A DNA stretch of 37,400 nt from a virus, in the IMG/VR virus record IMGVR_UViG_3300018481_000041, positions 1 to 37,400 of that record, one strand, 5' to 3'. Below are positions 13,387-26,228 of this stretch, piece after piece (within the stretch, counting starts at the first letter, position 1; each line of letters starts with the position of its first letter). A program made the position numbers and the translations under genes. Under the pieces are notes generated by a model that saw nothing but the letters and a program-made list of their open reading frames with translations, did not search any database and was not told the origin of the DNA.

Positions 13387-13915
13387 GAATGAACACGCAT
13401 TTCTGAGTCCCAGTTATTACCACTGGATCAACTACACGCCAGCTCGTCTAGCTGAACGCTGGACTACGATGCAGGCTGCAGCTGCTGGTACGGCTCAACA
13501 TGAGTATGCACACAACGAGATCAGGGCTGGTAGACTTTCGAGTTACGTCGGCACACTCGGAATGTACATCAATGACTGCATCGAGAACAAGATGGTCACT
13601 GAACAAGTCCTGTTCTATTCTGAAAATGCGTTTGGAACCACAGATGCAATATCATTCAGATATAGAACTCTGCGCATATTTGATTTGAAGACTGGCCGAA
13701 GCAAAGTGTCGATACATCAGCTCGAGGTGTACGTCGCTCTCTTCTGTCTCGAGTATCAAGTTGATCCACGTGGAATCAAGATCGAGCTTCGCATCTATCA
13801 AGACGATGAAGTTCAGATCTATGATGCTGACCCCGAAGATATCTTGTTCATCATGGACAAGATCATCGAGTTCGACAAGATGATCGAACAACTACGGCTA
13901 GAGGAGGAGCTATGA
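13358..13915 (+). CDS. RecB/Cas4-type PD-(D/E)XK exonuclease
   Basis: 185 residues from GTG 13358, six bases after GGAGG (13347-13351) and overlapping the preceding gene. The order of motifs fits the RecB/Cas4 nuclease superfamily: SPSYYHWINYTPARL, then AAAGTAQHEYAH with the leading His, then GTTDAISF with Asp, then IFDLKTGRSKVS with D109 and K111, then QLEVYVALF with Gln. The usual C-terminal iron-sulphur cysteines of Cas4 are absent. It probably degrades or resects double-stranded DNA in recombination, next to the other nuclease. GAGGAGG at its end serves the next gene. Confidence 0.85.
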   Translation: MRFNRHLLRENEHAFLSPSYYHWINYTPARLAERWTTMQAAAAGTAQHEYAHNEIRAGRLSSYVGTLGMYINDCIENKMVTEQVLFYSENAFGTTDAISFRYRTLRIFDLKTGRSKVSIHQLEVYVALFCLEYQVDPRGIKIELRIYQDDEVQIYDADPEDILFIMDKIIEFDKMIEQLRLEEEL

Positions 13916-16638
13916 CGTTTGTTATTACTGAAGAACAGTTTCTCAAGCATTATGGAACCCCTCGTAAGTCGGGTCGTTATCCATGGGGATCTGGTGGCAA
14001 CGTTGAACTTGAGTCCAAGCGCAATCGTGACTTCCTGGATTATGTTGCGATGCAGCGCAAAGAAGGGATGACTGATCAAGAGATCTGGAAAGGTATGGGT
14101 CTCACATCTTCATCTCAATTTCGTGCCCGTCAAGCTATCGCTACTAGTCAACAAGCGCAAGAGAAGATCAACACGGCTGTTCGCCTCAAAGATACAGGGA
14201 TGTCAAACAATGCGATTGCCAAAGAGATGGGTCTTCCGAATGAGTCTTCAGTACGATCGCTTCTTGATCCAGATCGACAGGCTCGTGCTCAAGTGCTCGC
14301 AAATACTGCAGCAGTTCTCAAGCGAGAAGTTGCAGACAAGACACTCCTCGACGTTGGCTCTGGTACCGAGTACAGCCTCGACATCTCGGAGGATAAGCTC
14401 AAGAAGTCTCTTGCAATGCTGCAGGAAGAGGGCTACGAAGTACATAAGATCGACGTCGTCCAACTTGGTACTGGTAAGCCAACCACTCGTAAAGTCCTCG
14501 CGGCTCCTGGTACTACTTGGGCGGATGTTGCTCGGAATAAGGGTGAGATCCGACTCATCGACGAATGGAGCGAGACTGGTGGGGAATCTCATAACCGTCC
14601 GAAGGCCCCACTTTCAGTAGACTCGAAGCGAGTTCAGGTCAACTTCGCTGAAGACGGTGGTGCCAAAGCAGACGGTGTGATCTATGTCCGCCCTGGTGTC
14701 GATGATATTTCAATCGGTGCCAATCAGTATGCTCAGGTTCGTATCCTTGTAGACGGCACACATTATCTCAAGGGTATGGCAACGTACAAGACTGATCTGC
14801 CTCCTGGTGTGGACCTCCAGTTCAACACCAACAAGTCTCGTAGTGTCGGCAAGATGAAGGCACTCAAACCAGTTGAGGCAGACAGCAACGGTAAAGTAGA
14901 TCCGATCAATCCGTTTGGCGCATCTATCAAGCGTCAGATTCAGGATGAACACGGTCGTGTCACCTCATCGATGAACATCATTCGTGATGAAGGTGATTGG
15001 GATGGTTGGACTCGAGCCATGTCATCTCAGATCCTTTCCAAGCAGACACCTGAGTTGGCCAAGGCACAGCTGGACATGACGTACGAGAATCATCGTAAGA
15101 ACTATGATGAGATCGTTGCGCTGACGAATCCTGCAGTGAAGCGTAAGCTGCTCGAATCATTCGCTGACAACGCAGACGCAGCAGCTGTGCATCTCAAGGC
15201 AGCAACACTTCCAGGTTCGGCATACCATGTGATCATGCCGATTCAATCCATCAAACCTACTGAAGTCTATGCGCCAAACTTCAGAGATGGTACTCGTCTT
15301 ACTCTTATTCGTTCTCCCCATGGTGGGACGTTTGAGATTCCTGAAGTCACGGTCAATAACAGGAATCGAGAAGGACGTAAATCATTTGGTACGCAGCCCA
15401 AGGATGTTGTTGGCCTTCATCCTTTGGTTGCTGAGCGTCTCTCCGGTGCAGATTTCGATGGAGACTTTGTTCTTGCAGTACCCAACGACCGTGGGTTGAT
15501 AAAAACATCCCCCGCCCTGGAAGGATTGAAGGGGTTCGATCCTAAGACATCGTTCCCTCCATATCCTGGGATGAAGAAGATCGGGAACCGCAAACAGCTC
15601 GAGATGGGTAAAGCTACCAATCTCATTGCGGACATGAGTATCAAGGGAGCAAGCAACGAGGAATTGGCTCGAGCAGTTCGCCATTCCATGGTTGTGATTG
15701 ATGCTGAGAAACATGATCTCGATTACCAAGGATCCTTCAAGCAGAACAACATTTCCCAGTTGAAGGCGAAGTATCAGGGTAGAAGTAATGCGGGTGCCTC
15801 TACTCTGATTACAAAGGCGTCATCAGAATATAGAATGCCTGAGCGTAGGCTAGCTCGGGTAAATGAAGGTGGCCCGATCAACCCGAAGACTGGTGAGAAG
15901 GTCTGGGTTCCCACTGGTAAGCAGATTCCGAAACGGGTTAAGTCTACGGATCCCGTTACTGGTAAGACCATCTATGTGGATACGGGTGAAACAAAGCCCA
16001 AGATGGTGATTACCAAGAAGCTTGTTGTAGAGAAGGATGCATTCAAGCTGTCCTCAGGTAGTGACATCGAGGCAGTGTATGCGGAATACTCCAATCAGAT
16101 GAAGGGCCTAGGTAATGCTGCAAGAAAGGCCCACCTAGAAACAAAGAGTATCCCCTATTCGCCTTCTGCAAAAGCCGCCTACTCAAATGAAGTGGCCTCT
16201 CTTAATGCGAAGTTGGATAACGCAAAAAGAAACCGCCCCCGTGAGAGGCAGGCCCAAACAATAGCGCATACTCTGGTGGCCCAGAAGAGGCAGGCCAATC
16301 CTGAGATGGATGATGATGATGTCAAGAAGGCCAAGAAGCAAGCTCTAGATGAGGCCCGTATAAGGACCGGAGCTAAGAAGGACATCATTGTAATCAGCCC
16401 TAAAGAATGGCAGGCTATTCAAGCAGGCGCTATTAGTAACCATGGGCTAGAGCAGATTCTAAACAATGCGGATCTTGATGTAGTTAAGGCCCATGCTACA
16501 CCTAAACAAGAGATCCTCATGACACCTACTAAGGCCAACCGTGCTAAGAACATGGCTGCCCTTGGTTTCACACAGGCCGAGATAGCGCAACAGTTGGGTG
16601 TCTCACTCACTACACTGAAGACGAGTCTCAATGGCTGA
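13912..16638 (+). CDS. RNA polymerase-like protein with beta-prime-type double-psi barrel
   Basis: 908 residues from ATG 13912, GAGGAGG upstream, ATGA-type overlap. The core GLHPLVAERLSGADFDGD (D514, D516, D518) closely follows the beta-prime segment LHPLV...NADFDGDQ, whose three Asp bind catalytic magnesium. Before it, RLTLIRSPHGGTFEIPEV lines up with the beta-prime LNRAPTLHRLGI segment. Farther upstream, YLKGMATYKTDLPPGVD followed by NTNKS may be the lysine-bearing barrel corresponding to beta. Two helix-turn-helix-like units lie near residues 55-125 (MTDQEIWKGMGL; MSNNAIAKEMGL) and one at the very end (TQAEIAQQLGVSLTTLK). It would be a single-chain polymerase like YonO; activity is inferred, and I know of no experimental study of this family. 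Confidence 0.75.
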   Translation: MTFVITEEQFLKHYGTPRKSGRYPWGSGGNVELESKRNRDFLDYVAMQRKEGMTDQEIWKGMGLTSSSQFRARQAIATSQQAQEKINTAVRLKDTGMSNNAIAKEMGLPNESSVRSLLDPDRQARAQVLANTAAVLKREVADKTLLDVGSGTEYSLDISEDKLKKSLAMLQEEGYEVHKIDVVQLGTGKPTTRKVLAAPGTTWADVARNKGEIRLIDEWSETGGESHNRPKAPLSVDSKRVQVNFAEDGGAKADGVIYVRPGVDDISIGANQYAQVRILVDGTHYLKGMATYKTDLPPGVDLQFNTNKSRSVGKMKALKPVEADSNGKVDPINPFGASIKRQIQDEHGRVTSSMNIIRDEGDWDGWTRAMSSQILSKQTPELAKAQLDMTYENHRKNYDEIVALTNPAVKRKLLESFADNADAAAVHLKAATLPGSAYHVIMPIQSIKPTEVYAPNFRDGTRLTLIRSPHGGTFEIPEVTVNNRNREGRKSFGTQPKDVVGLHPLVAERLSGADFDGDFVLAVPNDRGLIKTSPALEGLKGFDPKTSFPPYPGMKKIGNRKQLEMGKATNLIADMSIKGASNEELARAVRHSMVVIDAEKHDLDYQGSFKQNNISQLKAKYQGRSNAGASTLITKASSEYRMPERRLARVNEGGPINPKTGEKVWVPTGKQIPKRVKSTDPVTGKTIYVDTGETKPKMVITKKLVVEKDAFKLSSGSDIEAVYAEYSNQMKGLGNAARKAHLETKSIPYSPSAKAAYSNEVASLNAKLDNAKRNRPRERQAQTIAHTLVAQKRQANPEMDDDDVKKAKKQALDEARIRTGAKKDIIVISPKEWQAIQAGAISNHGLEQILNNADLDVVKAHATPKQEILMTPTKANRAKNMAALGFTQAEIAQQLGVSLTTLKTSLNG

Positions 16639-16992: not shown

Positions 16993-17112
16993 GCATCGCC
17001 TGGCTTATAAAAATAGCTCCGGCGGGATATTTGCCTCAATGTCTTTGGTTTTAGGGGGGTCTAAAACTCCTGGTAAGGGAGGGTCAACTCTCTCAAAGTG
17101 AAAGGAGAGTCT

Positions 17113-17460
17113 GTGCCCGCGAGGAAAAGGGGTGAAGAAGACAAGAGAACTAAGAGCAAACCGGCCACAACTCCTGAAGCTCGTGAGAATCAGTTGGTTT
17201 CTTATGCACATGACCTGGCTGAGAAGCAGATTCTCGAAGGAACAGCGTCGTCTCAAGTCATCACACATTTTCTCAAGCTCGGTTCAACTCGCGAACGACT
17301 CGAACAGGAGCGTTTGGAGCACGAGAATCAGTTGACGCAAGTCAAGATCCAAGCTTTGGAGTCGCAGGCGCGCATCGAAGAGCTTTACGTCAATGCTATC
17401 AACGCAATGCGTAACTATGCGGGTGAAGCGCCTCCTCCGGAGGAAGATGCCGAAGCTTAG
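17113..17460 (+). CDS. Small coiled-coil protein, candidate small terminase subunit
   Basis: 115 residues from GTG 17113, with AAAGGAG at 17101-17107. An upstream GTG at 17098 lies before the ribosome site. The N-terminus is basic (PARKRGEEDKRTKSKPATTP). The middle is helical: NQLVSYAHDLAEKQILEG, ASSQVITHFLKLGSTRERLE. A long coiled coil follows and the tail is acidic (APPPEEDAEA). The ATTPEAREN...TASSQVITHFLKLGS pattern is common in phages at the head of the packaging module. Its position before the HNH endonuclease and the large terminase favours a packaging role, though it is not proven by any motif. Confidence 0.6.
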   Translation: MPARKRGEEDKRTKSKPATTPEARENQLVSYAHDLAEKQILEGTASSQVITHFLKLGSTRERLEQERLEHENQLTQVKIQALESQARIEELYVNAINAMRNYAGEAPPPEEDAEA

Positions 17461-19380: not shown

Positions 19381-19770
19381 ATGGAAACGAGTATTCTAAA
19401 CAGCACTAAGAAGATCCTGGGCCTAGCACCTGACTATACGGTGTTCGACCATGATGTTATTACTCACATCAATACCGCGTTCTCCATTCTCACCCAGTTG
19501 GGAGTGGGACCTCCCATGGGGTTTATGATCGAGGATGAGACTGCGGAATGGACAGACTATGTTTCTGATAATGATTTTCAGTACAATTCTGTCAAGACCT
19601 ATGTCTATCTTAAGGTTCGTCAACTATTCGATCCGCCCCAGACGTCATATTTGATCTCTGCGATGGAACGACAGATTGAGGAGCTTGAGTGGCGACTCAA
19701 TGTTCATCGTGAGGAAACCGAATGGATCGATCCGGATCCGCCCGAGTTGCCTGAGGTAAGGTATGGCTGA
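19381..19770 (+). CDS. Probable head-tail connector (gp6-like)
   Basis: 129 residues from ATG 19381, preceded by AAAGGGGGTGAG. Helical blocks: ILNSTKKILGLAPDYTVFDH, DVITHINTAFSILTQLGVGP, VKTYVYLKVRQLFDPP and ISAMERQIEELEWRLNVHRE, ending in an acidic, proline-rich tail. This is the layout of the HK97 gp6-type connector proteins that add to the portal ring. Unusually it lies before the terminase rather than after the capsid gene. It overlaps the next gene by eight bases. Confidence 0.65.
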   Translation: METSILNSTKKILGLAPDYTVFDHDVITHINTAFSILTQLGVGPPMGFMIEDETAEWTDYVSDNDFQYNSVKTYVYLKVRQLFDPPQTSYLISAMERQIEELEWRLNVHREETEWIDPDPPELPEVRYG

Positions 19771-20743
19771 AAACGTCGTCATCGTTGCCATCCCGTCTCA
19801 GGACGACTACGTCTGGAAGGTCTCCAGCGAAAAAGTCCCGCACATGACGATCCTGTTCCTCGGTGAAGCCAAGTCTGTTGAGAATCTACCCGATATTATC
19901 GGGTTCGTTGAGCACGCGGCGGACGTTACGCTCAAGCGGTTCTACATGGATGTGGATCGCCGAGGAACACTTGGTGAAGATGAGGCAGATGTGCTCTTCT
20001 TCAACAAGACATGGTCAAAGGACATCGAGAACTTCCGTTCATATTTGCTCAAGGATGACAACATCCGCACAGCGTATGATTCGGTCGAGCAGTTCCCTGA
20101 ATGGCACCCACATCTTACACTCGGCTATCCCGAGACACCGGCCAAGGAAGATGAGCGCGACTACCCTCAGTTCTACGGGGTCAATTTTGATAAGATCGCT
20201 GTCTGGTTCGGTGACTACGAGGGTATCGAGATTCCCCTGAAGTCCTATGACTGGGACATGGAGGTGAGTATGAGCGTGATGGAAGACGGTAAGACTGCCG
20301 TCGAGAAGGCCCTTGCTCACTATGGTGTCAAGGGGATGCAGTGGGGTGTCCGCAAGAGCGATAGCTCGGGCAAAGACTCTCAGGCGCATGTCAGAAAGAT
20401 CAAGCAGCGTCAGCACGGAAAGACAAAGGTTGCTACTCGTGGTGGACGGGCGCAGCCTGCCGTCAAAGAAGCTATCGACGTTCGAGTTCTTCAGCAGACA
20501 CTCAAGAAGAGTGGGCCGAACGCTCTTACCAATGCTCAGCTCAAGGTGATGCAAGAGCGGCTGAATCTTGAGCAAAACGTCGGCCGTTTGGCCAAGACCA
20601 AGCAGAACAAGGTTGCCAAGGAGTGGGTCCAGGGCGAACTGAAGAAGGAAGGCAGTCGTCGGATTCAGGGTCTGGTGGCCAAGGACATGGCTAAGATGGC
20701 AGCAAAGAAGGCGGCTGCTGCAGCTGCTATCGCAGCAGTTTAG
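19763..20743 (+). CDS. 2H phosphoesterase domain fused to a tagged basic C-terminal region
   Basis: 326 residues from ATG 19763, GAGGTAAGG upstream. Residues 1-165 look like a 2H (LigT-like) phosphoesterase: HMT at 27-29 in PHMTILFLG and HLT at 117-119 in HPHLTLGYP, ninety residues apart as in that family. 2H enzymes cleave 2',3'-cyclic or 2'-5'-linked nucleotides. At 186-198 lies HYGVKGMQWGVRK, a motif that recurs in the protein at 22499. A basic, helical region follows (NALTNAQLKVMQERLNLEQN) and the end is alanine-rich (KMAAKKAAAAAAIAAV). The location among head genes suggests it is packaged in the virion; that is inference. It could act on host signal nucleotides, as the phage enzyme Acb1 does. 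Confidence 0.7.
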   Translation: MAENVVIVAIPSQDDYVWKVSSEKVPHMTILFLGEAKSVENLPDIIGFVEHAADVTLKRFYMDVDRRGTLGEDEADVLFFNKTWSKDIENFRSYLLKDDNIRTAYDSVEQFPEWHPHLTLGYPETPAKEDERDYPQFYGVNFDKIAVWFGDYEGIEIPLKSYDWDMEVSMSVMEDGKTAVEKALAHYGVKGMQWGVRKSDSSGKDSQAHVRKIKQRQHGKTKVATRGGRAQPAVKEAIDVRVLQQTLKKSGPNALTNAQLKVMQERLNLEQNVGRLAKTKQNKVAKEWVQGELKKEGSRRIQGLVAKDMAKMAAKKAAAAAAIAAV

Positions 20744-20756
20744 AAGGGAGGGTTAG

Positions 20757-22502
20757 TTGAGTCTATCGAATACTGCGACGCCTAAATACTATGGGCTGTT
20801 TCGTGATGCAGTCCTGCGAGGCGCGATTCCGGTAAACCGTGAAATCTCTCAGGAGATGAATCGGATTGATGCACTCATTGCTAACCCGAACATCTATTAC
20901 GACGATGATGCTGTCGAAGGGTTCATTCTCTACTGTGAGAACGAACTCACGCTGACTGACGGCTCTGATCTGCATCTGCTCGACTCATTCAAGTTGTGGT
21001 CTGAGCAGATCTTCGGATGGTACTACTTTGTCGAGCGTAGCGTCTACGTACCCAAGCCTCACGACAGAGGTGGACGCTATGTCAAGAAGACCATCAAGAA
21101 GAGGCTGATCCTCAAGCAGTATCTGATCGTCGCCAGAGGCGCGGCGAAGTCGATGTATGCGTCTCTCATTCAGAGCTACTTCTTGAATGTCGACACGACA
21201 ACGACTCACCAGATCACCACTGCACCGACAATGAAGCAGGCCGACGAGGTCATGTCCCCGTTCCGCACAGCCATCACGCGCGCGCGAGGACCACTATTCA
21301 AGTTCCTGACCGAAGGCTCTCTCCAGAACACTACTGGATCAAGAGCTAATCGGGTGAAGTTGGCAGCTACTAAGAAGGGTATTGAGAACTTTCTCACCGG
21401 CTCCCTTCTTGAAGTTCGTCCTATGGCTATCAACAAACTTCAGGGGCTCCGTCCCAAGATCTCCACAATTGATGAGTGGCTGTCCGGAGATCTTAGAGAG
21501 GACGTTGTTGGTGCAGTTGAGCAGGGAGCTTCCAAGTTGGAGGACTTTCTGATCATCGCAATCAGCTCTGAAGGTACGGTCCGCAACGGTTCCGGTGACA
21601 CCATCAAAATGGAACTAGCGGACATCCTTAAGGGTGAGTACCTAGCACCACATGTTTCGATCTGGCATTACAAGTTGGACGAAATCGAAGAAGTGGCCAA
21701 TCCATCAATGTGGGTGAAAGCTAATCCGAATCTGGGAGCTACAGTTTCGTATGAAACTTATCATCTTGATGTGGAGCGAGCCGAGAAAGCGCCAGCTGCA
21801 CGTAATGACATCCTGGCAAAGCGGTTCGGGATTCCAATGGAAGGCTACACGTACTTTTTCACGTACGAGGAGACCATTCCACATCGTCAGCGAGAATTCT
21901 GGCAGATGCCGTGTGCACTTGGTGCAGATCTTTCGCAAGGTGATGACTTCTGTGCGTTCACGTTCCTGTTCCCGATCGGTGAAGATAGATACGGAGTAAA
22001 GACTCGTAGCTACATAACAACTTTGACGTTGATGAAGCTTCAAGCGTCTATTCGTATGAAGTATGAAGAATTCATCAACGAGGGAAGCCTTCATGTCATG
22101 GATGGCAAGGTTCTGGACATGATGGAAGTGTACGATGATCTCGATGCTTTCATTCTTGCATCAGACTTCGACATTCGTGCGTTTGGGTACGACCCATACA
22201 ACGCCAAAGAGTTCGTGACACGCTGGGAAGGCGAGAACGGACCATTCGGAATCGAAAAGGTTCTTCAGGGCGCACGAACTGAGTCGGTTCCTCTTGGCGA
22301 ATTGAAGATTTTAGCTGAAGAACGTCTGCTCATATTTGACCAGGCGCTCATGTCATTCGCTATGGGTAATGCGATTACGTTGGAGGACACTAACGGTAAT
22401 CGAAAGCTTCTGAAGAAGCGACAGGACGAGAAGATCGACAATGTCGCAGCTTTGATGGACGCTTATATTGCGTACAAGGCCAATAAGGAGGCCTTTGAGT
22501 GA
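20757..22502 (+). CDS. Terminase large subunit
   Basis: 581 residues from TTG 20757, with AAGGGAGGG upstream. It is the packaging ATPase and nuclease. An atypical Walker A appears as VARGAAKSM (K131), Walker B as ISTIDEW (D239, E240), and the coupling segment as FLIIAISSEGT. The nuclease domain has ALGADLSQGDDF (D391) and, later, FDIRAFGYDPYNAKEF. Length and order fit phage large terminases of the TerL Terminase_1 type. It is flanked by the two genes carrying the GxKGMxWGVRK motif and overlaps the second by four bases. Confidence 0.92.
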   Translation: MSLSNTATPKYYGLFRDAVLRGAIPVNREISQEMNRIDALIANPNIYYDDDAVEGFILYCENELTLTDGSDLHLLDSFKLWSEQIFGWYYFVERSVYVPKPHDRGGRYVKKTIKKRLILKQYLIVARGAAKSMYASLIQSYFLNVDTTTTHQITTAPTMKQADEVMSPFRTAITRARGPLFKFLTEGSLQNTTGSRANRVKLAATKKGIENFLTGSLLEVRPMAINKLQGLRPKISTIDEWLSGDLREDVVGAVEQGASKLEDFLIIAISSEGTVRNGSGDTIKMELADILKGEYLAPHVSIWHYKLDEIEEVANPSMWVKANPNLGATVSYETYHLDVERAEKAPAARNDILAKRFGIPMEGYTYFFTYEETIPHRQREFWQMPCALGADLSQGDDFCAFTFLFPIGEDRYGVKTRSYITTLTLMKLQASIRMKYEEFINEGSLHVMDGKVLDMMEVYDDLDAFILASDFDIRAFGYDPYNAKEFVTRWEGENGPFGIEKVLQGARTESVPLGELKILAEERLLIFDQALMSFAMGNAITLEDTNGNRKLLKKRQDEKIDNVAALMDAYIAYKANKEAFE

Positions 22503-22894
22503 TCGATACAGAAAAGCCTGGGACTCCTTCTGAACTTGTACACTTCGGTACGAAGGGGATGAAGTGGGGGGTGCGTAAGACCCAGGGTACTCGTGATTTC
22601 TACGCGAAGAACCCCACATCGAAGCAGCGCACAGCAGAAATCGTCAAAGCTCGTGAAAGTGCGCAAAAGACGAAGAAGGCATACAAGAAGGAAAAGCGTG
22701 GTAGCGAGAAGCGTGCTGATCTGAAGAAAGTCCATCTGAGCAACCCGGATAGACCGACTTCGTTGCGCCTTACTCGGGGTGAGAAGGTTGTTGTTGGTCT
22801 TCTTAACGTTACTCCGGGCTTGAATGTTGCCACATCAGCTGCGACAGTCATTGCCATTGGCGCTCAAGGTAAGCGTCGGGCCGTCGAGAAGTAG
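22499..22894 (+). CDS. Small basic protein with GxKGMxWGVRK motif
   Basis: 131 residues from GTG 22499, overlapping the terminase stop, with AAGGAGG upstream. HFGTKGMKWGVRK occupies residues 15-27, almost at the N-terminus. A lysine-rich helical stretch follows (KARESAQKTKKAYKKEKRGS), then a hydrophobic segment KVVVGLLNVTPGLNVATSAA near the end. The motif equals that at residues 186-198 of the 2H phosphoesterase protein, while the rest is unrelated. Such motif-bearing proteins are frequent around head genes of phages of Gram-positive bacteria. It may be an internal head or ejected protein; function unknown. Confidence 0.7.
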   Translation: MIDTEKPGTPSELVHFGTKGMKWGVRKTQGTRDFYAKNPTSKQRTAEIVKARESAQKTKKAYKKEKRGSEKRADLKKVHLSNPDRPTSLRLTRGEKVVVGLLNVTPGLNVATSAATVIAIGAQGKRRAVEK

Positions 22895-24224: not shown

Positions 24225-26228
24225 ATGGGAGCGAAGGCTAAGCCCGACTTGAGCGTTACGCTCGGTGGCAGCCTCATGCACGATCGCGAGCCCGATTTCA
24301 GTGGCTATGCCACTAAGGCTGGCCTGAAGTGCTCCGATGGTCGAACGATCATGAAGGATGCGTTCAAGCATCAGGACAAGCTGAACGTCCCGCTCGTCTG
24401 GGCTCACGGTCATAGCGAACCGTCGAACGTCCTCGGTCACACGACGCTCGAGAATCGCGACGACGGTGTCTACTGCTACGGTTTCTTCAACGAGACCGAG
24501 CAGGGTAAGAACGCCAAGACGCTGGTGCAGCACGAGGACATCAAGCACCTCTCGATCTACGCCAACCAGCTGGTCGAGAAGGCTGCGAACGTCCTTCACG
24601 GGATGATCCGCGAGGTCAGCCTGGTCATGGCGGGCGCCAATCCGGGCGCCTTCATCGACAACGTCTCTGTCGCACACAGCGATGGCGAAGTCGTCACGCT
24701 GTCCGATGAGGTCATCGTCTACACCGACGAGGTGCTCCAGCACGCGGATGAGCCGGGTGCCAAGAAGGACGAGAAGGAAGAGGACGGTCCGACCGTCCAG
24801 GAAGTTTACGATGGCATGTCCGAAGAGGAGCAGGCTGTCGTGCATTACATGGTCGGCGCCGCGCTCGAAGAGGCGGGTACCGCAGAGCATTCCGACAAGT
24901 CTGAGAAGAAGGAAGGAATCTGGATGTCTCGCAACGTCTTCGAGCAGCAGAAAGAAGGCAAGAAGGACGGTCCCGGCAGCCGCGTGCTTTCGCATGACGA
25001 GATCGCGGGAATCGTCGAGGACGCCAAGAAGAACGGCTCGCTCAAGGGCGCAGTCGAGGCTTTCGCGCTGAAGCACGGCATCGAGAACATCGAGGTCCTG
25101 TTTCCCGACGCCCGCGCTGTCGACGCCACCCCGGAGTTCGACAAGCGCCGGACCGAGTGGGTCGCCGGAGTCATCAACGGGACCAAGCACTCCCCGTTCT
25201 CCCGGATCAAGTCCCTCGTCGCCGACATCACCTTCGACGAAGCCCGTGCCAAGGGCTACATCAAGGGCAACTTCAAGAAGGAGGAGTGGTTCGGAGTCTC
25301 CAAGAGGGTGACGACGCCGAGCACCGTCTACAAGAAGCAGAAGCTGGACCGTGACGACATCATCGACATCACGGACTTCGACGTCGTCGCCTGGCTCAAG
25401 GGCGAGATGCGGATCATGCTCGACGAGGAACTCGCGCGCGCGGTCCTGATCGGTGACGGTCGCGAAGTGGACGACGAGGACAAGATCAAGGATCCGATCG
25501 GTGCCGTGGAAGGCGCAGGCATCCGCTCGATCGCCAACGATCACGACCTGTACGCCGGTTCGGTGTTCGTCAACATCGATGACGTGGATTCCACGCCCGA
25601 GGAGATCGTCGAGGCGATCATCCGCTCGATGGGCCTCTACAAGGGCTCCGGTTCGCCGACGTTCTACACGACGCTGGCGGTCTACACCGAACTCATCCTC
25701 GCGAAGGATGGGATGGGTCGGCGCCTGTGGAACAACAAGGCCGAACTCGCTTCCGCGATGGGCGTCGCAGGCATCGTCGAGGTCGAGGTCATGGAGTCCG
25801 AGCCCGAGATCGTCGGGATCATCGTCAACCTGAGGGACTACACCCTCGGCGCGGACAAGGGTGGCGACGTCGCGTTCTTCGATGACTTCGACATCGACTA
25901 CAACCAGTACAAGTACCTGCTGGAGACCCGCCTCTCCGGCGCGCTCACGAAGATCCGTTCCGCTCTCGTGGTTCGCAAGGTCGACGTCGCTTCGGTGCTC
26001 GTCAAGCCGACCAAGCCGACCTTCTCGGGTGGCAACACGGTCACGGTTCCGACCATCACGGGTGTCACGTACAGGCAGAGTGACGGAACCCTCATGATCG
26101 CGGCTACGCCGATCGTGCTGGCAGCCGGTCAGGATCTGACGGTCGAAGCCACGCCCTCGACGCCTGCGTACTACTTCGCAGACAACGTCAACGACCAGTG
26201 GACGTTCAAGAACACCGCTGAGTCCTAG
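24225..26228 (+). CDS. Prohead protease fused to major capsid protein
   Basis: 667 residues from ATG 24225. Residues 1-165 are an HK97-type prohead protease: VWAHGHSEP with H61/H63 and KHLSIYANQL with S110, spacing as in that family, then REVSLVMAGANPGA. An acidic delta-like region (residues 165-230) follows. The HK97-fold capsid protein occupies about residues 235-590 (VINGTKHSPFSRIKSL, WLKGEMRIMLDEELARAVLI, AVYTELILAKDGM). An extra beta-rich C-terminal domain (VTVPTITGVTYR ... DQWTF) is related to the end of the tail-tube protein at 26862. AAGGAAGGA before ATG 24924 may allow capsid protein alone to be made. Codons are very strongly G/C-ending, indicating high expression. Confidence 0.9.
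   Translation: MGAKAKPDLSVTLGGSLMHDREPDFSGYATKAGLKCSDGRTIMKDAFKHQDKLNVPLVWAHGHSEPSNVLGHTTLENRDDGVYCYGFFNETEQGKNAKTLVQHEDIKHLSIYANQLVEKAANVLHGMIREVSLVMAGANPGAFIDNVSVAHSDGEVVTLSDEVIVYTDEVLQHADEPGAKKDEKEEDGPTVQEVYDGMSEEEQAVVHYMVGAALEEAGTAEHSDKSEKKEGIWMSRNVFEQQKEGKKDGPGSRVLSHDEIAGIVEDAKKNGSLKGAVEAFALKHGIENIEVLFPDARAVDATPEFDKRRTEWVAGVINGTKHSPFSRIKSLVADITFDEARAKGYIKGNFKKEEWFGVSKRVTTPSTVYKKQKLDRDDIIDITDFDVVAWLKGEMRIMLDEELARAVLIGDGREVDDEDKIKDPIGAVEGAGIRSIANDHDLYAGSVFVNIDDVDSTPEEIVEAIIRSMGLYKGSGSPTFYTTLAVYTELILAKDGMGRRLWNNKAELASAMGVAGIVEVEVMESEPEIVGIIVNLRDYTLGADKGGDVAFFDDFDIDYNQYKYLLETRLSGALTKIRSALVVRKVDVASVLVKPTKPTFSGGNTVTVPTITGVTYRQSDGTLMIAATPIVLAAGQDLTVEATPSTPAYYFADNVNDQWTFKNTAES

What the first reader, a model, noticed from the sequence alone, without database searches (positions are those of the whole stretch)
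19763..20743. 2H phosphoesterase likely carried in the virion: possible anti-signalling defence
The N-terminal domain has two HxT motifs (27-29, 117-119) typical of 2H enzymes. Acb1 of T4-like phages is a 2H enzyme that destroys CBASS cyclic nucleotides. Here the domain is fused to HYGVKGMQWGVRK and a basic, alanine-ended region, and the gene lies among head genes. A packaged enzyme would act at injection, before immune signals build up. The anti-defence role and packaging are inference.
Basis: partly seen in the sequence, partly recalled or inferred. Interest (0 to 1): 0.7.

Follow-up and report, generated by a model that had tools for sequence, protein, structure and literature searches.

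The report
Phage enzyme with head-cargo address tag
This phage gene encodes a conserved 2H phosphoesterase joined to a short peptide tag (HYGVKGMxWGVRK) that many otherwise unrelated proteins of one family of phage heads share, so the enzyme is probably loaded into the virus particle and delivered with the DNA; its substrate, including any immune signal, is not known.

Summary
ORF 19763-20743 has a well-folded 2H phosphoesterase domain (aa 1-165; HxT at 27-29 and 117-119), then a Pfam DUF7211 peptide (H186-K198), then a basic C-terminal module. The 2H domain is strongly constrained (dN/dS 0.06-0.09), and both HxT motifs are kept across 95 tagged relatives. It is not Acb1: Pfam's Acb1 model does not hit it, and its nearest folds are cyclic phosphodiesterases, LigT and Usb1. 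Virion-carried 2H domains fused to MuF or portal were already proposed to counter nucleotide signalling (PMC5512222, PMC9503650).

The tag is the newer part. In 120 viral loci found by the tag alone, 117 carry a core gene of one head type. In 84,980 bacterial and archaeal genomes, 44 of 49 consensus tags lie beside those genes, against 0 of 25 chance matches. Tagged proteins are hypervariable (109 clusters, where TerL forms 1), basic, and some carry acetyltransferase or papain-fold toxin domains. Phages with the tag lack MuF; phages with 2H on MuF or portal lack the tag. One tagged protein, Lactococcus phage 1706 orf7, is annotated as structural.

Virion cargo is therefore likely (about 0.7). 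Destruction of immune signals is only one of several possible activities.

The parts
19763..20743 (+). 2H phosphoesterase - DUF7211 tag - basic C-terminal module, 326 aa
19763..20257 (+). 2H phosphoesterase domain, aa 1-165
   Evidence: pLDDT about 96, Foldseek, dN/dS 0.06-0.09
19841..19849 (+). first HxT motif, H27-M28-T29
   Evidence: 94 of 95 tagged relatives, the other a truncated domain; A4
20111..20119 (+). second HxT motif, H117-L118-T119, in PHLTLGYP
   Evidence: 95 of 95 tagged relatives; H117 and T119 invariant in A4
20297..20365 (+). DUF7211 tag (Pfam span aa 179-201); core HYGVKGMQWGVRK at 20318-20356
   Evidence: Pfam 8.5e-12; unstructured in the model, pLDDT < 50
20465..20605 (+). 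C-terminal helical module (ALTNAQL...RLNLEQNV), aa 235-281
   Evidence: A3, helices in the model
19381..19770 (+). connector (Phage_connect_2), overlaps the 2H-tag gene by 8 bases
   Evidence: Pfam 6.9e-41; phrog_4247
20757..22502 (+). terminase large subunit
   Evidence: TerL_nuclease 5.6e-36; phrog_9 1.6e-109
22499..22894 (+). second tagged protein, 131 aa, basic; tag HFGTKGMKWGVRK at 22526-22585
   Evidence: Pfam DUF7211 3.9e-9; net charge +0.137 per residue
22927..24198 (+). portal protein
   Evidence: Phage_portal 7.3e-13; phrog_12
24225..26228 (+). S78 prohead protease - major capsid protein fusion, the head type with which the tag co-occurs
   Evidence: (phrog_3270 9.7e-237)

Best explanation
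The gene encodes an active 2H phosphoesterase that is virion cargo. A short unstructured DUF7211 peptide, [LI]xH[YHF]G[VI]KGM[KR]WGV[RK][RK], marks it, and a varied set of other basic proteins encoded between connector and portal, for association with heads of the protease-capsid-fusion type. After delivery with the DNA the enzyme would cleave a 2'-linked or 2',3'-cyclic (oligo)nucleotide, either an immune signal or an RNA end, before early genes are expressed. Shown by computation: 2H fold, conserved catalytic motifs, purifying selection, tag identity, confinement of the tag to one head type, alternative MuF and portal carriers. Inferred: that the tag acts as a loading signal, that the protein is in the particle and ejected, and the substrate.
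For: 2H fold and motifs. Tag confined to one head type: genus counts of phage records with the tag and with the protease-capsid fusion nearly coincide (Arthrobacter 95/95, Gordonia 55/55, Streptomyces 54/54); 117 of 120 pattern-only loci have a core gene of this head; in bacterial and archaeal genomes 44 of 49 consensus tags versus 0 of 25 other pattern matches. Position: tagged genes co-oriented with the core genes in every comparison, mostly between connector and TerL or between TerL and portal; 70 of 77 connector-TerL slots hold one. Cargo-like: 178 tagged proteins form 109 clusters versus 1 for TerL; net charge +0.106 per residue versus negative core proteins; GNAT, papain-fold glutamine deamidase, 2H and RNase III-like domains; Secretariat gp15 is tag-GNAT-tag-deamidase. 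Tags of non-homologous proteins in one phage resemble each other (z 14), fading to none 60 residues away. The same 2H domain sits on MuF in Hyperion and on the portal in Rasputia, and tag and MuF are mutually exclusive in 31 records. Lactococcus 1706 orf7, with two tags, is annotated 'structural protein'.
Against: No mass spectrometry of any 2H-tag protein was found, and the 1706 annotation could not be traced to its paper here. Nothing shows that the tag binds a head protein. In five loci an untagged 2H gene sits in the same connector-TerL slot, so fusion to the tag is not required for the association. Phage relatedness inflates co-occurrence. The near-universal slot could mean that one tagged protein has a structural job of its own.
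Confidence: 0.66

Rival explanations
1. Injected anti-signalling enzyme: the packaged 2H domain destroys immune nucleotides (CBASS cyclic oligonucleotides, CRISPR type III cyclic oligoadenylates, Thoeris or similar signals) at entry.
For: 2H enzymes include Acb1 and the viral 2',5'-phosphodiesterases, and the viral RNase L antagonist 4ye2 is among the matches. Published prediction for MuF and portal fusions.
Against: Not in Pfam's Acb1 family; hhalign matches only the second HxT; Acb1 is rank 50, E 0.02. No substrate data.
Confidence: 0.33
2. Virion-carried RNA enzyme: it opens 2',3'-cyclic phosphate ends or trims RNA like Usb1 or LigT, to repair or attack tRNA and host RNA at the start of infection.
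For: Nearest folds are plant cyclic phosphodiesterase, E. coli LigT and human Usb1; Pfam and NCBIfam leads are 2',3'-cyclic phosphodiesterase-like. Iyer et al. favour RNase or 2'-5' activity because such versions do not associate with RNA ligases.
Against: No RNA ligase was recognised among the window proteins scanned, but not every ORF was scanned and the record may be a fragment, so repair is unsupported rather than excluded. Fold similarity does not fix the substrate.
Confidence: 0.33
3. The tagged C-terminal part is an essential structural head or packaging protein (minor head, scaffold or terminase accessory), and 2H is an optional extension, as in MuF proteins.
For: 70 of 77 connector-TerL slots hold a tagged gene; 1706 orf7 is called structural.
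Against: Tagged proteins are extremely diverse (109 clusters) and number up to nine per phage, unlike a single essential component; the shared part is about 25 residues.
Confidence: 0.3
4. The tag is a terminase, connector or DNA-binding accessory motif used only in the infected cell, and the proteins are not packaged.
For: Tagged genes flank TerL and are basic.
Against: The same 2H domain on portal and MuF carriers; structural annotation of 1706 orf7.
Confidence: 0.17

Closest known systems
Virion-borne 2H domains fused to MuF or portal (Iyer et al. 2017 PMC5512222; 2022 PMC9503650)
   Same: Same 2H type encoded with head genes; proposed to be packaged, injected and to counter nucleotide signalling
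   Different: Carrier is the 25-residue DUF7211 tag, and the genome lacks MuF; I found no mention of the tag in the literature searched
Acb1 (PF23474), T4 57B
   Same: 2H phosphoesterase with two HxT motifs in a phage
   Different: No Pfam Acb1 match, weak profile match restricted to the second HxT, more distant in fold than LigT, CPDase or Usb1; tagged and in the head operon
MuF polymorphic toxins (Jamet et al. 2017, PMC5576092)
   Same: A constant head-associated module joined to variable effector domains
   Different: MuF is a folded, portal-associated domain; DUF7211 is a short, apparently unstructured peptide, and MuF was absent from all 29 tag-bearing records tested
T4 capsid targeting sequence of internal proteins
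   Same: Short peptide proposed to send varied basic proteins into the head of a phage with a prohead protease (T4 part from my own knowledge)
   Different: No sequence relation tested; the DUF7211 tag is often near the N-terminus but internal here, and cleavage is unknown
DUF7211 (PF23847)
   Same: Same Pfam family
   Different: Pfam gives no function; the head-type association and cargo reading are proposed here

Membership tests
2H phosphoesterase superfamily | two HxT/S motifs | tested here: met
   H27/T29, H117/T119, kept in relatives
2H phosphoesterase superfamily | 2H fold | tested here: met
   pLDDT about 96; Foldseek to CPDase, LigT, Usb1
2H phosphoesterase superfamily | phosphoesterase activity | not testable with these tools
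   dN/dS 0.06-0.09 is consistent with activity
Acb1 (PF23474) | match to the Acb1 model | tested here: not met
   No hit at E <= 1; T4 57B hits at 2.7e-60
Acb1 (PF23474) | cleavage of CBASS cyclic nucleotides | not testable with these tools
   none
ThpR RNA 2',3'-cyclic phosphodiesterase (TIGR02258) | equivalog score cut-off | tested here: not met
   25.5 bits against 65.7
DUF7211 (PF23847) | score over the gathering cut-off | tested here: met
   44.7 bits against 27
MuF-carried effector | MuF domain in the protein or phage | tested here: not met
   0 of 29 tag-bearing records, the window included
Virion cargo or injected protein | present in purified particles | not testable with these tools
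   only the 'structural protein' annotation of tagged 1706 orf7
T4-type capsid targeting sequence | N-terminal peptide removed by the prohead protease | not tested
   tag position is usually aa 8-30 but internal here; cleavage unknown

The most novel reading that the evidence does not exclude
DUF7211 is a portable head-loading peptide: a short linear signal, read by one widespread head type in phages of Actinobacteria, Firmicutes and others, that recruits exchangeable effectors (2H phosphoesterases, acetyltransferases, papain-fold deamidases and many unknown proteins) into the particle, doing with 25 residues what MuF does with a folded domain.
Probability: 0.5. Interest if true: 0.8.

Novelty: new variant of a known kind. 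Interest (0 to 1): 0.62.

Why it matters
If the tag is a head-loading signal, a 25-residue sequence search would list injected effector candidates in hundreds of isolated and very many uncultured phages whose genes are now mostly 'hypothetical protein', and would make early, virion-borne counter-defence testable in laboratory actinophages. It also corrects the common database label 'RNA ligase' for this family.

Tried and rejected
Acb1 membership: rejected. Solved-structure sequence search with the family profile: no match at E <= 10. Relatives of the 2H-tag protein in 84,980 bacterial and archaeal genomes: none. Literature for DUF7211 or GMKWG: nothing relevant. Arthrobacter phage ArV2, looked up because its proteome was studied: its annotation shows separate protease, scaffold and capsid genes, a different head type. 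Composition as the cause of within-phage tag similarity: control windows fall to no effect by 60-80 residues. Tag inside core head proteins: never seen. The 1706 proteome paper (Garneau 2008) is not in the library.

Full report
What is there. It overlaps the connector gene by 8 bases and is followed by TerL, a second small tagged protein (22499-22894), portal and a protease-capsid fusion. The window is an IMG/VR virus record of 37,400 bases, possibly a fragment.

The enzyme. Pfam gives 2_5_RNA_ligase2 at 5.9e-6 (0.2 bits below the cut-off) and LigT at 2.7e-4. AlphaFold2 on a 60-sequence alignment gives pLDDT about 96 for residues 1-160, below 50 across most of the linker and tag, and about 92 at best for a C-terminal helical region. 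Foldseek puts it with Arabidopsis cyclic phosphodiesterase, E. coli LigT, Usb1 and viral 2',5'-phosphodiesterases; Acb1 is rank 50 at E 0.02. Among 95 tagged relatives the first HxT is found in 94 (the other is a truncated domain match) and the second in all (several needed reading by eye because the motif is followed by GFP or GYA rather than GYP). dN/dS is 0.06-0.09 in the 2H domain against 0.12-0.28 in the C-terminal part. The enzyme is therefore very probably active, with unknown substrate. It is not an Acb1 by Pfam, while T4 57B is.

The tag. DUF7211 is a 25-residue Pfam family of unknown function. A degenerate DNA pattern for it gave 120 viral loci (scan stopped at its limit). Consensus: [LI]xH[YHF]G[VI]KGM[KR]WGV[RK][RK], usually at aa 8-30. 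117 of the 120 loci carry at least one core gene of the window's head type (TerL 110, connector 81, portal 78, protease-capsid 65), always in the same orientation as the tagged gene, and tagged genes fall mainly between connector and TerL (68) or TerL and portal (45). 70 of 77 connector-TerL slots hold a tagged gene. The same pattern in 84,980 bacterial and archaeal genomes gave 74 stretches; 49 fit the protein consensus, and 44 of these lie within the same 8 kb as this head's genes, against 0 of the 25 that do not fit. The consensus filter was chosen after seeing the viral set but uses the tag only. Among phage records, genus counts for tag and for protease-capsid fusion nearly coincide; I compared counts, not every record. 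Lactococcus differs (4 against 13), so some relatives of this head have a diverged tag or none.

Why cargo. Tagged proteins in those loci fall into 109 clusters for 178 sequences while TerL and portal form one each, and they are basic after the tag (+0.106 per residue) while the core proteins are slightly acidic. Their recognised domains include GNAT acetyltransferases, papain-fold glutamine deamidase, 2H, RNase III-like and P-loop domains. Gordonia phage Secretariat gp15 is tag-GNAT-tag-deamidase. ReqiPepy6 has eight tagged genes and Arthrobacter phage Qui nine tag sites. Non-homologous tagged proteins of one phage share tag variants more than expected (z 14 over the tag, 0.3 at 60-80 residues away); phage relatedness is only partly controlled there. 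The same 2H domain occurs with MuF in Microbacterium phage Hyperion and on the portal protein of Rasputia. In 31 records, the 29 with the tag have no MuF and the two with MuF have no tag. Lactococcus phage 1706 orf7, in the same slot and with two tags, is annotated 'structural protein'; I could not read the paper behind that annotation.

What is known. Iyer and colleagues described 2H domains fused to MuF or portal and proposed packaging, injection and degradation of immune nucleotides or RNase action. I found no paper on DUF7211 or the GMKWG peptide in the library searched; subscription journals are missing from it.

Mechanism and limits. I favour a tag-addressed, virion-carried 2H phosphoesterase (0.66). 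Counter-signalling and RNA-end chemistry are about equally likely as activities. A structural role for the tagged module, with 2H as an extension, is compatible with packaging. The rival confidences therefore overlap and do not sum to one. Against a strict need for fusion, five loci have an untagged, distantly related 2H gene in the same slot beside a tagged gene, which may equally be an independent recruitment. No statement here about presence in particles, ejection or substrate is experimentally shown.

Noticed in passing
window 13912-16638 (+): 908-aa protein with a DFDGD motif and helix-turn-helix matches near both ends; matches phrog_4291 'RNA-dependent RNA polymerase' over its whole length. 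Possibly a phage single-chain double-psi beta-barrel RNA polymerase.
   Followed up: partly
window 17098-17460 (+): 120-aa protein that reads like a small terminase subunit (recalled similarity, not tested), upstream of an HNH gene.
   Followed up: no
L070 3406-3963; L035 5377-6060; L018 4344-4910; L101 3923-4474; L103 668-1150: Distantly related untagged 2H genes lying between a tagged gene and TerL, a possible second recruitment of the enzyme to this slot.
   Followed up: partly
L130 9739-11379 (Gordonia phage Secretariat gp15): tag-acetyltransferase-tag-papain-fold glutamine deamidase in one protein.
   Followed up: partly
L267, L240, L264, L279, L282: Consensus tags with this head type on contigs binned as a Thermoplasmata archaeon, Parachlamydiaceae, Saccharibacteria and Dependentiae; may be binning errors or unusual hosts.
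   Followed up: no
phage records H2, H4, H10, H13 and others: The 2H-tag family is widely labelled 'RNA ligase' in deposited actinophage genomes, probably a carry-over from the old Pfam name 2'-5' RNA ligase.
   Followed up: no
L126 16521-17603; L131 (phage Qui) gp018, gp019, gp022, gp024: Several tagged proteins are annotated as membrane proteins, so some cargo may act at the cell envelope.
   Followed up: no
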